Shown here: positions 9,039-14,564 of the stretch, piece by piece
Layout: the number at the start of each line of letters is the position of its first letter
How positions within the stretch are numbered: the stretch's first letter is position 1
DNA from: Candidatus Brocadia sapporoensis
GTDB taxonomy: Bacteria; Planctomycetota; Brocadiia; Brocadiales; Brocadiaceae
Assembly (NCBI RefSeq): GCF_001753675.2
Contig: NZ_MJUW02000077.1
Coordinates: 1 to 45,105 of the forward strand
Reading direction: 5' to 3'
DNA: 45,105 nucleotides
Notes under the pieces: model-generated
What the model saw: only the letters and a program-made list of their open reading frames with translations
Database searches by the model: none
Told to the model about the DNA's origin: nothing
Translations under genes and position numbers: made by a program

Positions 9039-10109
9039 ATGACAAAAAAAATAAAAAGAGGACTATCTTACAGAGATGCCGGAGTTGATATTGACACAAA
9101 AGGTCAATTTACTACAGATATTTATTCAAAAATGCGAACGACCTTTGATCAGAGGGTGATTGAAAATCCTGATGGTTTTGGCGGATTGTTCACTTTAAAC
9201 TCCCGGGTGAAGAAATATCGTCAACCTGTTCTTGTCTCTTCTACGGATGGAGTTGGTACCAAGTTAAAGATTGCATTTATGATGGATAAGCACGACACCA
9301 TCGGGATTGATCTGGTGGCCATGTGCGTCAATGATATCATCGTATTGGGCGCCGAGCCCCTGTTTCTCCTGGACTACCTGGCCAGCAGCAAGATCGTGCC
9401 AAGGGTGCTTCACGAGGTATTGGATGGTATTGTGGATGGTTGTCGTCAGGCAGGCTGCGCCCTCATTGGCGGTGAAACACCGGAGATGCCCGGGTTTTAT
9501 CACGAGGGGGAATACGATATCGCAGCCTTTGTAGTCGGCGTTGTTGAAAAAAACAAAATTATTAATGGGAAGACAATAAAACCCGGAGACGTGGTGATTG
9601 GTTTGCAATCGGGCGGAATCCATAGCAATGGATTTTCCCTTGTGAGAAAGGTCTTCTTTGACAAGGCAAAGATGAAGATAACCCAGAGTCTAGACAAGTA
9701 TGGGTTGAAGACTACCCTGGGAACGGAATTACTGAAACCAACCAGGATCTACGTAAAGTCGATTCTGAGCGTGCTAAGCAAGCACAAGACCCGGAGGATC
9801 ATAAAGGGGATGGCGCATATTACCGGGGGTGGCCTGTTGGAAAATATACCCCGTATCTTACCGCAAGGTTGTGCCGTTCGTTTGGAAAGAAACAAATGGA
9901 ATATCCCGGAGATATTTAAAATTGTTCAGAACGTTGGCAACATTGAGGATCAGGAAATGTTCCGTGTGTTTAACATGGGAATAGGGATGGTATTGGTTGT
10001 ATCCAAATATGATGTGAAAACAGTCTTAGCCGATCTTAAACACGCAAAAGAACCGGGAACGGTTATTGGTGAGGTGGTAAAAGGAAGCGGGATTGTGCAT
10101 GTTGTGTAA
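9039..10109 (+). CDS. purM: Phosphoribosylformylglycinamidine cyclo-ligase (AIR synthetase)
   Basis: PurM closes the imidazole ring in purine synthesis, turning FGAM plus ATP into AIR. The 356 residues carry the family's landmarks: the SYRDAGVDID opening, VSSTDGVGTKLKIA, the metal and nucleotide-contacting GGETPEMPGFY, GLQSGGIHSNGFSL, and ITGGGLLENIPR near the C-terminus. The first ATG at 9028 stops after four codons, so 9039 is the start. It is followed, after a 635-bp gap, by guaA, another purine gene on the same strand. Confidence 0.95.
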   Translation: MTKKIKRGLSYRDAGVDIDTKGQFTTDIYSKMRTTFDQRVIENPDGFGGLFTLNSRVKKYRQPVLVSSTDGVGTKLKIAFMMDKHDTIGIDLVAMCVNDIIVLGAEPLFLLDYLASSKIVPRVLHEVLDGIVDGCRQAGCALIGGETPEMPGFYHEGEYDIAAFVVGVVEKNKIINGKTIKPGDVVIGLQSGGIHSNGFSLVRKVFFDKAKMKITQSLDKYGLKTTLGTELLKPTRIYVKSILSVLSKHKTRRIIKGMAHITGGGLLENIPRILPQGCAVRLERNKWNIPEIFKIVQNVGNIEDQEMFRVFNMGIGMVLVVSKYDVKTVLADLKHAKEPGTVIGEVVKGSGIVHVV

Positions 10110-10744: not shown

Positions 10745-12295
10745 ATGATGGATGACAAGAAGGAAAAGATTTTAATCCTCGATTTTGGCTCTCAATACGC
10801 CCAGCTTATTGCACGCCGGGTAAGAGAGAATAACGTTTATAGTGAGATTGTGTCACACAAGATAACTATAGCGGAGATACAAAAGGCCAATCCAAAAGGC
10901 ATTATCCTCAGCGGTGGTCCAGCCAGCGTGTATGCGAAAAATGCCCCGCGATGCGACGAAGGGATCGCTGCTCTGGGAATACCCATATTAGGCATCTGCT
11001 ACGGAATGCAACTGGGATGCCAGATGCTGGGCGCTACCGTTCGCCCAACTACCGCAAGGGAATACGGAAAAACTGCCTGCACGTTCAACACCGAAAGTAA
11101 GTTGTTCAAAGCATTGGCCAGAGATGCGGTTGTATGGATGAGCCATGGCGATCAGGTGGTAGAATTACCGGCAGAATTCGAATCACTTGCATTTACCAAT
11201 AATTGCCCTTTTGCAGCAGTAAAACATAGAAGGAAGGATTTTTACGCTGTACAATTCCATCCTGAAGTTTCACACACTCCGCAGGGAAATCATATCATTC
11301 GTAATTTTTTATATGAAATTTGCGGTTGCGCCGGTGACTGGAAGATGCACTCCTATATAGAAAAATCGGTAAGTGAGATTCGCAAACAAGTTGGAGAGGG
11401 AAGGGTCATTTGTGGATTATCGGGCGGGGTCGATTCCGCTGTAACAGCGGCGCTCATCCATAGAGCCATTGGAAATCGCCTGTCCTGCATTTTTGTTGAT
11501 AACGGACTTCTAAGAAACTATGAGGCCGATGAGGTTATAAAAACGTTTAAAGAAAACTTTACTATAGATCTGCACGCCATTGATGCACAGAACCGTTTTT
11601 TAGAAAAACTAAAAGGCGTAACTGATCCGGAAAAAAAACGTAAAATTATTGGACACGAATTTATTGAGGTTTTCAAGGAAGAGGCAAAGAAGATATCTCA
11701 GGCAAAATTTCTTGCGCAGGGTACGCTTTATCCCGACGTCATTGAAAGCATCCCCGCCCATGGCGGTCCGACGGTCACCATCAAGAGTCACCACAATGTG
11801 GGTGGCCTGCCGGCAGAGTTAGGTTTTGAACTCGTTGAACCACTGAGACTTTTATTCAAAGACGAGGTGCGAAAGATAGGAGAAGCGCTTGGATTGCCGG
11901 AAGAATTGGTCTGGCGTCATCCCTTTCCTGGCCCTGGACTAGCCATCCGGATTATTGGTGAGGTTACAAAGCCACGCCTCGATATCCTTCGGAATGCGGA
12001 TAGGATTGTTATCGAAGAAATACGCAAGGCAGGTCTCTATCGTTCCATAGCCCAGTGTTTTGCCGTACTTTTACCGCTCAGTACTGTGGGGGTTATGGGG
12101 GATGAAAGGAGTTATGAAAACGTCATTGCCGTTCGTGCGGTAGAGACAACCGACTTTATGACTGCCAATTGGTACCGTATACCCTATGACGTATTGGAAA
12201 TTATTTCCAGCCGGATTATCAACGAAGTCAAAGGCGTCAACCGCGTAGTTTACGACATCAGTACCAAACCACCGAGTACCATTGAGTGGGAGTAG
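10745..12295 (+). CDS. guaA: GMP synthase (glutamine-hydrolysing)
   Basis: GuaA aminates XMP to GMP with glutamine as nitrogen donor. The N-terminal class I amidotransferase has the nucleophile motif GICYGMQLG and the [10 protein letters not shown] histidine/glutamate pair. The ATP-pyrophosphatase domain has the PP-loop LSGGVDSAV. The C-terminal dimerisation domain ends in the invariant [11 protein letters not shown]. The 516 residues are typical. ATG codons lie at 10745 and 10748. The 3' end is intact and directly borders the cassette array that starts at 12423. guaA 3' ends are known integration sites for genomic islands in other bacteria. Confidence 0.96.
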
Positions 12296-12422
12296 GCATT
12301 TTTGCGCAATGAAATGGGTCGTATGATCCAACAAATAAGTTCTTTCCGTAACCGGGCAACGATAAAGCTGAGTTGCGCCCAACAAAGGTAGCAACCAGGT
12401 TTGAATAAGACAAACTGTCTAT

Positions 12423-12484
12423 GTTTAACAATCGCTTGAACGGAGACTCGCTCTTGGGCGTCAATCTCCAGCAACTTGTTAGAT
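12423..12484 (-). mobile_element. attC-like recombination site closing the toxin-antitoxin cassette
   Basis: Read on the minus strand, the site opens with R'' ATCTAAC (RYYYAAC) and closes with R' GTTAAAC (GTTRRRY). Between them TAACAA/TTGTTA, GCT/AGC and GGAGA/TCTCC can pair, with unpaired extrahelical bases, as in an attC hairpin. The toxin stop codon (12479-12481) lies inside R''. Its R'' is complementary at 6 of 7 positions to the first bases of the same cassette (G/TTGGAT at 12995-12989), as expected for a gene cassette that has existed as a circle. Confidence 0.65.
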
Positions 12485-12775
12485 TTTTTCTTTATCGAAC
12501 ATACGTTTTCCATGTATTACGGTAAGAATATGAATCTCATTTGCTTTGATTTCATAAACGATACGATATTGGAAAACAAATAATTCTCGAATAGATTCAT
12601 CGCCAACCTCTGGCACAACTCTGCCTATTTTGGGGTGTTGGATTAGCGACTGAGGAGCTTCAAATATTTTTTGAATTGTAGATTCAGCATAAAACTCAGA
12701 ATCTCTTGCGATAAACTCCCCAATTGCCTCTATATCTTCTAAAGCTTCAGGTGACCAAATTATTTTGTAATCCAT
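12479..12775 (-). CDS. ParE/RelE-superfamily toxin
   Basis: A 98-residue protein of the ParE/RelE toxin fold, which poisons gyrase or cuts ribosome-bound mRNA depending on the branch. The sequence has the ParE-type order: IIWSPEALEDIEAIGEFIARDS helices, HPKIGRVVPEVGDESIREL, the FQYRIVYEI strand and a closing VIHGKRMFD strand. The E(S)IREL...YRIVYEI block favours ParE over RelE. It overlaps its antitoxin gene by 16 bp, a sign of translational coupling. It is cargo of an integron-type cassette, where such modules are thought to stabilise the array. Confidence 0.85.
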   Translation of the reverse strand: MDYKIIWSPEALEDIEAIGEFIARDSEFYAESTIQKIFEAPQSLIQHPKIGRVVPEVGDESIRELFVFQYRIVYEIKANEIHILTVIHGKRMFDKEKI

Positions 12776-12948
12776 TTTGAAAGTCGTACTTTGGCTTCCT
12801 CGTAGGAAATACCTTTACCGTTTTTTATGGATTCTTGGCCCTTCCTGATCTTTTCTAGCACATAAAGATGGTATTGGATGTCTTCCAGTGTGGCATCTTC
12901 CGGCAAGTGATGAATCATTTTTGTAATGTTGTCTTTTAAAGTACTCAT
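12760..12948 (-). CDS. Antitoxin partner of the ParE-type toxin
   Basis: A 62-residue protein starting at ATG 12948 (MSTLKDNITKMIHHLPEDAT). An upstream in-frame start at 13017 would run through the attC site and is unlikely. It resembles the small helical antitoxins paired with ParE/RelE toxins, with the usual LP(E/D)DAT(L)EDIQYHLYVLEKI first half and a K-rich C-terminal arm containing SYEEAKVRLSKW. I see no classical ribbon-helix-helix, so DNA binding is inferred from the palindrome just upstream of its start (12957-12976). The toxin follows with a 16-bp overlap. Confidence 0.75.
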   Translation of the reverse strand: MSTLKDNITKMIHHLPEDATLEDIQYHLYVLEKIRKGQESIKNGKGISYEEAKVRLSKWITK

Positions 12949-12956
12949 AACAATAT

Positions 12957-12976
12957 TATAGGAAATTTTTCCTATA
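12957..12976. promoter_or_regulatory. Probable toxin-antitoxin operator palindrome
   Basis: TATAGGAAA and TTTCCTATA form nine-base perfect arms around TT, ending 8 bp before the antitoxin ATG. A palindrome at the promoter and ribosome-binding position is the usual autoregulatory operator of type II toxin-antitoxin operons. It lies within the short leader of the cassette, so the cassette would carry its own regulation. Confidence 0.55.
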
Positions 12977-12988
12977 GAATGAAGTAAA

Positions 12989-13064
12989 ATCCAACGCTGC
13001 GCATAACCGGCTGGCAATGAAGCGCAGCGAAATTGCCAGTCCGCGTTGATGCGGTTGTTAGCGG
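12989..13064 (-). mobile_element. attC-like recombination site closing the TIR cassette
   Basis: On the minus strand the site runs from R'' CGCTAAC (13064-13058) to R' GTTGGAT (12995-12989). The centre forms a strong hairpin: CTGGCAAT pairs with ATTGCCAG, flanked by GCGG/CCGG-type and CGC/GCG pairs with bulges. The TIR stop codon (13058-13060) lies inside R''. R'' departs from the RYYYAAC consensus in its first two bases but is exactly complementary to the start of its own cassette (GTTAGCG at 14075-14069), which is a stronger test than the consensus. Confidence 0.75.
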
Positions 13065-14038
13065 TTCCCTTTTGGTTGCAAAGCCTTTCTTAACTCTCCG
13101 ATGCCCTCACTCCACTTTGATTCATCTGAGAAATCTATGTATTTCAGTCTTCTAATGAGGTTATCGATAGGTTCGGGGAAACTCTCTTCTTTTGTAAGCA
13201 CTACTGGAATTATGTTTTTACCATCAGCGAAACCCATAAATTGGGACACCTCGAAGTTGACCCAGCTTGACTCTGTTGAATGTCTGGAAATCACAAGAAG
13301 CAAGTAGTCTGTGTCGCAGGAACGAAGGCTGTTCGTAATCGTCTGCTGAATATCAGCACCGGCAAGAATCTCATTCTCGTCAATCCAGAATCGAATATCT
13401 GAAGACAGTTCATGAATGAGCTTTTTAACAAATGCTTTGTCTTTGCTGGAGTGGCTAATAAAGACTGTAGATTTTGGAAGTTGTCTTGTTATTGTTTCTT
13501 TGAATTGATGATTCACCCGGTCATGCCAAATTAGATTTTCAGATAAAAAAGTCTCGGACAGTTTTTGTGCAAGATGGTGCGTCCGTTTTACTTCGATGCA
13601 AGCATTGATAGCTTCTTTCAGTTTATGTGGGAATCTGTCAAAGGTGCTACAAGCGAAACCTGCAAAAAACTCAGGATAATAGTGATAGGTTGACCAGCCA
13701 CCCGGTTTGGGAACGCCACCACCTTCAAGGCTAAAAAATATAAAAGTTGGGTCGTTCTTGAGTGGTATTCCCATTGTCTTAAATTCATTTCGCATATATC
13801 GCCAGTCTTCGTCCGGAATGATGTTCCCTTCATAAATGAGTGGCGTGAATATGTGAAAGTTCTTACCGCTGAATGATGATATCCTGTCTTTGTTATTTTT
13901 AAAGTAATCCACATACTCATTGTCGAGTGACGAGAAAAAAGCAATCATGAACCGAGAATTTTCCGGCTTCAATTGCTGTTCATTCATCAAACGGACTACT
14001 TCCTCAATCCACTTCTCAGTCGGATGTATGTACCACAC
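13058..14038 (-). CDS. TIR-domain protein with unrecognised N-terminal half
   Basis: The C-terminal part (about 190-305) is a TIR domain: TVFISHSSKDKAFVKKL as strand A and box 1, WIDENEILAGADI as the BB-loop region, DYLLLVISRHSTESSWVNFEV with the probable catalytic glutamate E263, then IIPVVL. Bacterial TIR domains of this type often cleave NAD+ and serve as effectors in phage defence. Whether this one does is inference. Residues 1-180 are unknown, rich in aromatic residues (SLEGGGVPKPGGWSTYHYYPEFFAGF). The start is GTG at 14038, chosen because AAGGAG lies 7 nt upstream. The stop is inside the attC R'' box. Cargo of cassette 1. Confidence 0.85.
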   Translation of the reverse strand: MWYIHPTEKWIEEVVRLMNEQQLKPENSRFMIAFFSSLDNEYVDYFKNNKDRISSFSGKNFHIFTPLIYEGNIIPDEDWRYMRNEFKTMGIPLKNDPTFIFFSLEGGGVPKPGGWSTYHYYPEFFAGFACSTFDRFPHKLKEAINACIEVKRTHHLAQKLSETFLSENLIWHDRVNHQFKETITRQLPKSTVFISHSSKDKAFVKKLIHELSSDIRFWIDENEILAGADIQQTITNSLRSCDTDYLLLVISRHSTESSWVNFEVSQFMGFADGKNIIPVVLTKEESFPEPIDNLIRRLKYIDFSDESKWSEGIGELRKALQPKGNR

Positions 14039-14078
14039 GGTTCACTCCTTCATCCTGTATTGTGTTACCGCTAACAAT

Positions 14079-14106
14079 GTTATTAACAAGTTTTCCTTTT
14101 AATAAC
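14079..14106. promoter_or_regulatory. Inverted repeat upstream of the TIR gene
   Basis: GTTATTAA (14079-14086) and TTAATAAC (14099-14106) are perfect inverted arms around 12 bases, about 40 bp upstream of the TIR start and just outside the cassette boundary. It could be an operator or part of the resident integration site. Nothing else recognisable lies between here and 14437. Confidence 0.35.
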
Positions 14107-14564
14107 AAAAAGGTACAACGTTTGTCAACTAAAAAGGCATTTAAATTGACCTATGAAGTCTTTATAAATATAATTTCTACCTCGTTAGTAACACAGATTG
14201 AGTGATAACAAGAAATAGGATAAGTATTCATGCTCAATATCCCTGCCGCTCTTTTTACAAAATAGAGCATAACACTAAGTGAAAAATTGGTTCCGGTTTC
14301 CATTCATAATAACAATCCCAGATGTGTAGCCCGGTTCAACTCTATCTTTACCAAATAAATTGGGTATCAGATCTTGTTGTCCCTTAGGTTATTTCAAAGA
14401 CAAATTCGACACTTTTAGCAAAGATGTGAACAAAATTAACCCTGTCAGAGTTTGAAACTCTGACAGGGTTGAAGTACAAATTTTGCGATTCCTATTTTGT
14501 CTTTTCTAATTTGTTTGGGCTATGAGACATTTAACCGTAAAGCCCTTCATAACACGGCGTTCCT
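14107..14564. other. Gene-free stretch between TIR gene and barrel gene
   Basis: No gene seen on either strand. The only notable structure is the palindrome at 14438-14470. The rest is AT-rich with frequent stops. Confidence 0.5.
14438..14470. repeat. Perfect 33-bp palindromic repeat, possible terminator
   Basis: AACCCTGTCAGAGTTT and its exact complement flank a single G. It lies 95 bp past the stop of the minus-strand barrel gene, and on that strand it is followed by TTAATTTTGTT, so it could end that transcript. A second member of the family, sharing AATTAAC before and GTTGAAG after, is at 40705-40736, which marks it as a dispersed repeat. Confidence 0.65.

What the first reader, a model, noticed from the sequence alone, without database searches (positions are those of the whole stretch)
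12423..14075. Two integron-type gene cassettes without integrase at the guaA 3' end
Seen: two attC-like sites on the minus strand, each with R''/R' boxes and a bulged hairpin, and both upstream stop codons inside R''. The decisive detail is that each cassette starts with the complement of its own R'': CGCTAAC pairs exactly with GTTAGCG for the TIR cassette, and ATCTAAC pairs with GTTGGAT at 6 of 7 for the toxin-antitoxin cassette. This is expected only if each unit was once a circle closed by its own attC. Known: attC clusters lacking an integrase exist in many genomes, and guaA 3' ends attract genomic islands. Inferred: this lineage acquires defence and addiction genes through cassettes.
Basis: partly seen in the sequence, partly recalled or inferred. 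Interest (0 to 1): 0.85.

Follow-up and report, generated by a model that had tools for sequence, protein, structure and literature searches.

The report
Integron cassettes cut off from integrase
Two small mobile gene units, one carrying a likely antiviral TIR enzyme and one a toxin-antitoxin pair, still sit at their original docking site in an anaerobic ammonium-oxidising bacterium, while the recombinase gene that would have placed them appears broken, with its larger part elsewhere in the genome.

Summary
The window comes from an anammox genome and carries two integron cassettes on the minus strand: a TIR-domain gene (14074-12995) and a ParE-type toxin-antitoxin pair (12994-12360). With an attC model trained on sites outside the window, the two best hits in 45 kb are these sites (41.0 and 29.8 bits; next 13.5). 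The second site is longer than reported: 12354-12484. The interpretation needs correcting. Window 14071-14312 is the attI site, the intI promoter and the first 27 codons of intI, 76-83% identical to a region upstream of guaA in four congeners, each with different first cassettes. The rest of intI, with an open core, is at the end of another contig (93% DNA identity to a congener). So this is not an off-target insertion at guaA and not an integrase-free genome, but the array end of a guaA-linked chromosomal integron, separated from its integrase: a CALIN that has kept attI. New member of a known kind. An anti-phage role of TIR is inferred; an assembly join is not excluded.

The parts
10745..12295 (+). 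guaA (GMP synthase), next to which this integron lies in several congeners
   Evidence: Pfam GATase and GMP_synt_C; 84-90% identical in 9 of 10 congeners, split into two frames in the tenth
12354..12484 (-). attC of the toxin-antitoxin cassette, long form: R'' ATCTAAC 12478-12484, R' GTTGCCC 12354-12360
   Evidence: model R2, 29.8 bits, E 4.5e-5; homology to the G020 copy runs to 12369
12360..12994 (-). toxin-antitoxin gene cassette (second in the array)
   Evidence: 5' boundary at the R' box shared with the G005, G004 and G020 copies, each behind a different attC
12479..12775 (-). ParE/RelE-type toxin gene, 98 aa; stop codon inside R''
   Evidence: PF05016 1.7e-19; TIGR02385 28.4 bits against a cut-off of 27.9; 95, 93 and 89% identical copies in G005, G004, G020
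12760..12948 (-). probable antitoxin gene, 62 aa, overlapping the toxin start
   Evidence: open frame upstream of and overlapping the toxin; no Pfam match, no NCBIfam match over cut-off; conserved beside the toxin in the copies aligned
12955..12976 (-). possible own promoter and operator of the TA cassette: TATAAT with the inverted repeat TATAGGAAATTTTTCCTATA (plus strand)
   Evidence: read from the sequence; inference; not reported by the promoter scan
12989..13063 (-). attC of the TIR cassette
   Evidence: 41.0 bits with R2; 94% identical twin in G004
12995..14074 (-). TIR gene cassette (first in the array, next to attI)
   Evidence: starts GTTAGCG at the attI crossover, own R'' CGCTAAC
13058..14038 (-). 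TIR-domain protein gene, 326 aa, GTG start; stop codon inside R''
   Evidence: TIR_2 1.7e-24; bacterial TIR proteins of solved structure, among them NAD+ hydrolase AbTIR, match profile positions ~183-272
14069..14128 (-). attI core with crossover box (14069-14075) and possible cassette promoter (TTGACA 14128-14123, weak -10 at 14104-14099)
   Evidence: homology to G009, G010, G005 and G001 begins at this box; promoter by eye, inference, not reported by the scan
14146..14174 (+). intI promoter, TTGACC-17-TATAAT
   Evidence: 11 of 12 consensus positions, but such hits are not rarer in shuffles (2 found, shuffled mean 5.9); the evidence is its conservation in G009 and G010
14230..14312 (+). 5' remnant of intI: ATG and about 27 codons with TAG at codon 12 (14263-14265), then breakpoint
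   Evidence: alignment with the G009 intI frame; 87% over 14214-14312, the rest of intI found from C17:187 on

Best explanation
This is the attI-proximal end of a chromosomal integron that in this anammox genus lies next to guaA. IntI (in the past) inserted each cassette at attI by attI x attC recombination: first the TA cassette, then the TIR cassette, so that TIR is now first. Later the intI gene was broken after about codon 27, and its remainder (core domains open) is now elsewhere in the genome, beside what looks like an IS110-type element. The array thus became a CALIN that still has its attI, and the side of guaA on which it lies changed. Shown: cassettes, attI, intI 5' remnant, separate intI remainder, different first cassettes at the same attI in congeners. 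Inferred: the order of events; that a rearrangement and not an assembly error made the junctions; that TIR is read from an attI-side promoter and acts as an NAD+-consuming anti-phage effector; that the TA pair has its own promoter and helps to keep the array.
For: Window 14070-14313 is 83, 81, 76 and 78% identical to a region upstream of guaA in G009, G010, G005 and G001 (before a full intI in G009 and G005); homology starts at the crossover box, and the sequence beyond it differs in each genome. intI pieces: C44:14214-14312 (87%) and C17 from 187 on (93.4% over 1213 bp to G009), with 85 bp of the G009 gene in neither. The C17 frame has SAM-like and catalytic domains and 346 bits to TIGR02249. 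The two attC are the top two R2 hits of the window. Start/R'' rule for the cassette at attI, read from the printout: TIR 7/7, G009 7/7, G005 7/7 (its attC scores only 14.6 bits), G010 5/7; no attC was found for the first cassette of G001. TA copies elsewhere begin at the same R' box behind other attC sites of 47.5, 30.9 and 24.5 bits.
Against: The guaA-array junction (12296-12353) and the breakpoint at 14312 have no counterpart in the loci compared, so a wrong join in a 123-contig assembly is possible. The mechanism of the rearrangement is unknown; the IS110-type element is seen only from an 82% match over 119 bp at a contig end. attC 1 was weak with R1 (21.8 bits, E 0.335 genome-wide). No expression or recombination data.
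Confidence: 0.8

Rival explanations
1. Off-target insertion: cassettes were placed at a non-classical (attG-type) site after guaA by an integrase encoded elsewhere.
For: The genome has an intI core elsewhere, and such insertions are described (Loot et al. 2024, seen only as a citation and in passages of PMC12901181).
Against: The array is joined to a 240-bp attI/intI leader homologous to that of four congeners, not to a chance site.
Confidence: 0.06
2. Assembly artefact: the integron is intact (array-attI-intI) and contig C44 joins two unrelated pieces.
For: Draft of 123 contigs; C17 begins 186 bp before the intI homology; draft assemblies are known to split integrons (PMC9024848, passages).
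Against: The intI 5' remnant carries a stop codon at codon 12, and 85 bp of the gene are in neither piece, as expected of a decayed, truly broken gene.
Confidence: 0.12
3. Genomic island at the guaA 3' end of the usual kind (tyrosine integrase, duplicated guaA end).
For: Position right after guaA; such islands are known (recalled).
Against: No phage-type integrase match on the contig; no second copy of the last 21 bases of guaA in the window with up to 3 mismatches.
Confidence: 0.01
4. Ordinary defence and TA genes side by side, the attC-like hairpins being chance.
Against: R2 scores, 94% twin of attC 1 in another array, TA homology boundary at the R' box, attI.
Confidence: 0.01

Closest known systems
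CALIN (cluster of attC sites lacking an integron integrase; IntegronFinder)
   Same: two attC sites in one array with no intI match on the contig
   Different: it keeps attI, the intI promoter and the first codons of intI, so an origin by breakage can be read from it; PMC8618304 (passages) lists loss of intI and genomic rearrangement among the proposed origins of CALINs
Sedentary chromosomal integron (recalled type: Vibrio, Xanthomonas, Treponema)
   Same: chromosomal attI with variable first cassettes, TA cassettes, cassettes that begin with the complement of their own R''
   Different: small arrays in an anammox planctomycete, next to guaA in several congeners; integrase displaced, fragmentary or gone in three (G000, G010, G001) of the five genomes that keep this attI near guaA
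Integron of Candidatus Kuenenia stuttgartiensis
   Same: an intI from this anammox species is already in a published tree (PMC3607928, passage)
   Different: no comparison with that published record was made; the 4.4-Mb relative G020 may be it (inference)
Defence genes as integron cassettes (Darracq et al. 2025, Kieffer et al. 2025, as summarised in PMC12409362, passages)
   Same: candidate anti-phage gene as a first-position cassette
   Different: here a TIR-domain protein; no activity shown

Membership tests
Integron gene cassette | attC site with R''/R' boxes and folded stem at the 3' end of a short gene | tested here: met
   both sites are the top R2 hits of the window; covariation score of the 43 training sites reached by 0 of 500 shuffles (that alignment was fitted to the structure, the independent one of 18 gave 0 of 500 too)
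Integron gene cassette | cassette start complementary to its own R'' | tested here: met
   7/7 and 6/7; control arrays 10 of 20 pairs at 7/7, 0 of 10000 permutations as high
Integron gene cassette | same cassette found at other places with boundaries at the att boxes | tested here: met
   TA cassette only: 5' boundary in G005, G004, G020; their 3' ends lack a complete attC. TIR cassette: no copy found in 38 relatives
Complete integron | attI next to the array | tested here: met
   14069-14312 homologous to the region between first cassette and intI in congeners
Complete integron | functional intI adjacent to attI | tested here: not met
   only 83 bp of intI with an internal stop remain; core on C17
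CALIN | at least two attC sites without nearby integrase (IntegronFinder 2.0 rule, passage) | tested here: met
   two attC, no integrase match on C44; IntegronFinder itself was not run
TIR NAD+ hydrolase | TIR fold with catalytic glutamate | tested here: inconclusive
   TIR_2 1.7e-24; E263 in WVNFE invariant in 5 of 5 aligned sequences, its catalytic role recalled; AlphaFold model poor, mean pLDDT 56.6; activity not testable here
Type II toxin-antitoxin, ParE/RelE | toxin of the ParE/RelE family with an upstream antitoxin gene | tested here: met
   PF05016 70.6 bits; the upstream 62-aa frame has no family match, so its role is inferred from position
guaA genomic island | integrase and duplicated guaA 3' end | tested here: not met

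The most novel reading that the evidence does not exclude
A split, two-locus integron: the detached attI-array platform at guaA is still served in trans by the decapitated but complete IntI core encoded on another part of the chromosome, so that loss of linkage did not end cassette capture.
Probability: 0.15. Interest if true: 0.6.

Novelty: new member of a known kind. Interest (0 to 1): 0.4.

Why it matters
How a CALIN arose usually has to be guessed. Here attI, the intI stub, the rest of intI and the intact arrangement in congeners are all visible, so one proposed route (array cut off from its integrase by rearrangement) can be read from sequence. The locus also shows that integrons with variable first cassettes recur next to guaA in an anammox genus, and it offers a TIR-domain cassette in first position as a candidate anti-phage gene.

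Tried and rejected
Off-target (attG) insertion was my first working idea; it was dropped when the sequence beside the TIR cassette proved to be attI. A home-made R''/R' plus folding scan gave many chance hits and served only to pick training sites; covariance models replaced it. Rfam gave one sub-threshold hit to an unrelated family. The TIR structure prediction was too poor to search with; no fold search was made. PADLOC gave partial matches only, 16 families, best 48.5 bits, over the TIR domain in the main. TIR homologues in four Bacteroidota/Chlorobi loci have no attC detected by R1 (E <= 1) or R2 (E <= 2). The gene that follows guaA in congeners was not found in this genome (the tool warns that an empty answer alone shows little). 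Literature, seen as listings with abstract starts: integron + anammox + attC gave 2 papers, at least three of integron, Kuenenia, Brocadia, gene cassettes gave 8, integron + guaA gave 66 of which 10 were listed, mostly on clinical or resistant strains. I make no claim that this locus is or is not in print beyond these searches.

Limits of the models: R2 was trained on 43 R1 hits, among them the G004 twin of attC 1 and the attC upstream of three TA copies; no window site and no TA attC was in either training set.

The start/R'' count used 28 of 41 hits; one search repeats it with all 41.

Full report
What was checked. The window is one whole contig (C44, 45105 bases) of a 2.93-Mb, 123-contig genome, 99.1% complete. 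A hydrazine synthase alpha match (0 of 14 control genomes) makes it an anammox bacterium; the genus is probably Candidatus Brocadia, which is recalled and was not tested.

The two cassettes. On the minus strand a 326-aa TIR-domain gene (14038-13058) is followed by attC 1 (13063-12989), then a 62-aa probable antitoxin gene and a 98-aa ParE/RelE-type toxin gene (12948-12479), then attC 2. To test the sites without using them, I built a covariance model (R1) from 18 attC sites near intI genes of relatives (84.0% of cells paired, 0 of 500 shuffles as high). R1 found 12 sites in this genome at E <= 0.01 and at least one in 33 of 39 genomes, own included, but was weak on the window: attC 1 21.8 bits in the genome search, E 0.335, and 9.3 bits for attC 2. 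A second model (R2) from 43 R1 hits in 21 loci, again without the window, gives 41.0 bits (E 8.6e-8) for attC 1 and 29.8 bits (E 4.5e-5) for attC 2, with the next of 9 window hits at 13.5 bits. R2 contains the G004 twin of attC 1, so that score is partly helped; it contains no TA attC.

Cassette boundaries. Of 20 pairs less than 3.2 kb apart 10 match 7/7 and 12 at least 6/7, mean 5.95 against 4.67 permuted, 0 of 10000 permutations as high; with no distance limit 11 and 13 of 22. The window gives 7/7 and 6/7. The TA cassette recurs at unrelated loci, with toxin identities of 95% (G005), 93% (G004) and 89% (G020). In these three, homology begins at the R' box (GTTAGATTTTACTTC; GTAAGAT in G004), each copy behind a different attC with 47.5, 30.9 and 24.5 bits; in G020 blastn runs 16 bases past the box. 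In G015 the box is altered and no attC was found there; the more distant G030 and G037 copies have no attC. At the 3' side the G005 copy diverges within R'', G004 a few bases after R'', and G015 and G020 later, inside the attC, sharing one downstream flank. No model hit covers the 3' end of these four copies (R1 on all four; R2 on G020 and G015), so the window copy is the only one seen with a complete site. attC 1 recurs at 64 of 68 bases behind another gene (an acyltransferase by its residues, recalled) next to a full intI in G004.

attI and the broken integrase. Window 14070-14313 matches, at 83, 81, 76 and 78%, a region upstream of guaA in G009, G010, G005 and G001. In an alignment homology begins at the R box next to the cassette, and the sequence on the cassette side differs in every genome: different first cassettes at one attI. 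The block includes the intI promoter (conserved; the consensus scan alone proves nothing, 2 hits against 5.9 in shuffles) and the intI start; in the window the frame has TAG at codon 12 and stops being homologous after 14312. The rest of intI starts at C17:187 with 93.4% identity to G009 over 1213 bp; 85 bp of intI lie in neither piece. The C17 frame keeps the SAM-like and catalytic domains and scores 346 bits against a cut-off of 265. C17:1-118 is 82% identical to sequence just upstream of an IS110-like transposase frame in G010 (family named from its residues, recalled), so an insertion element may lie at the break. A further short match to the intI leader, 82%, is on C102.

guaA neighbourhood. 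In 4 of 10 congeners the attI block lies upstream of guaA (G001, G005, G009, G010); in 3 (G002, G004, G007) it is not near guaA; in 3 (G003, G006, G008) the contig ends 265-406 bp upstream. Full intI is present there in G005 and G009, fragments in G010, none was seen in G001. In 9 of 10 congeners the same ~220-aa gene follows guaA; in G008 it was not found before the contig end 1054 bases on. In the window guaA is preceded by a purM-like gene (9039-10109, named from its residues) and followed by the array. So the array has moved from one side of guaA to the other relative to congeners. How is not known. A phage-type guaA island is not supported.

Function. TIR: family matches cover about residues 165-322; the closest solved proteins are bacterial TIR proteins, among them NAD+ hydrolase AbTIR. 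Full-length or nearly full-length relatives at 55-61% were found in 4 Bacteroidota/Chlorobi loci (L053 is cut by its contig), none with a detected attC; 11 of 38 relatives have some TIR-domain match but none full-length. This suggests capture from outside the lineage. Being first behind attI, the gene would be read from a cassette promoter there if one exists; my candidate is weak. The TA cassette has a TATAAT and an inverted repeat of its own. Anti-phage function is inferred from the family and from published integron defence cassettes (PMC12409362, passages).

Verdict. Known kind; useful as a readable case of how a CALIN forms.

Noticed in passing
L089:7231-8610 (G009 intI): The guaA-linked intI of G009 encodes 459 aa; Pfam reports two SAM_4 stretches, the better at 148-228, so there may be a second SAM-like domain in the long N-terminal part.
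   Followed up: partly
L050, L051, L052 from 5001 (4986 in L052): Three of four TIR homologues found outside integrons are 458-460 aa, about 130 residues longer at the C-terminus than the 326-aa cassette protein; the fourth (L053) ends like the cassette version.
   Followed up: no
L152, L153, L154, L160 (TA copies): TA cassette copies in G005, G004, G020 and G015 lack a complete attC; G020 and G015 share the same downstream flank, which in G020 begins a transposase-like frame (transposase recalled from residues).
   Followed up: partly
L094:9075-11382: G004 has intI and a cassette in the same direction with the cassette on the 3' side of intI, an order described for Treponema.
   Followed up: no
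genomes G005, G008, G010: Blocks similar to this attI match 6, 4 and 4 times per genome, which suggests several integron platforms or remnants.
   Followed up: no
window 14438-14470: Near-perfect palindrome AACCCTGTCAGAGTTTCAAACTCTGACAGGGTT just beyond the intI breakpoint, with similar copies in loci of two relatives (L079, L157).
   Followed up: no
G000 contigs C77 (L107) and C110 (L108): Two further small attC arrays in the same genome, four and three attC by R2; some frames look like toxin-antitoxin genes (recalled, no family search).
   Followed up: partly
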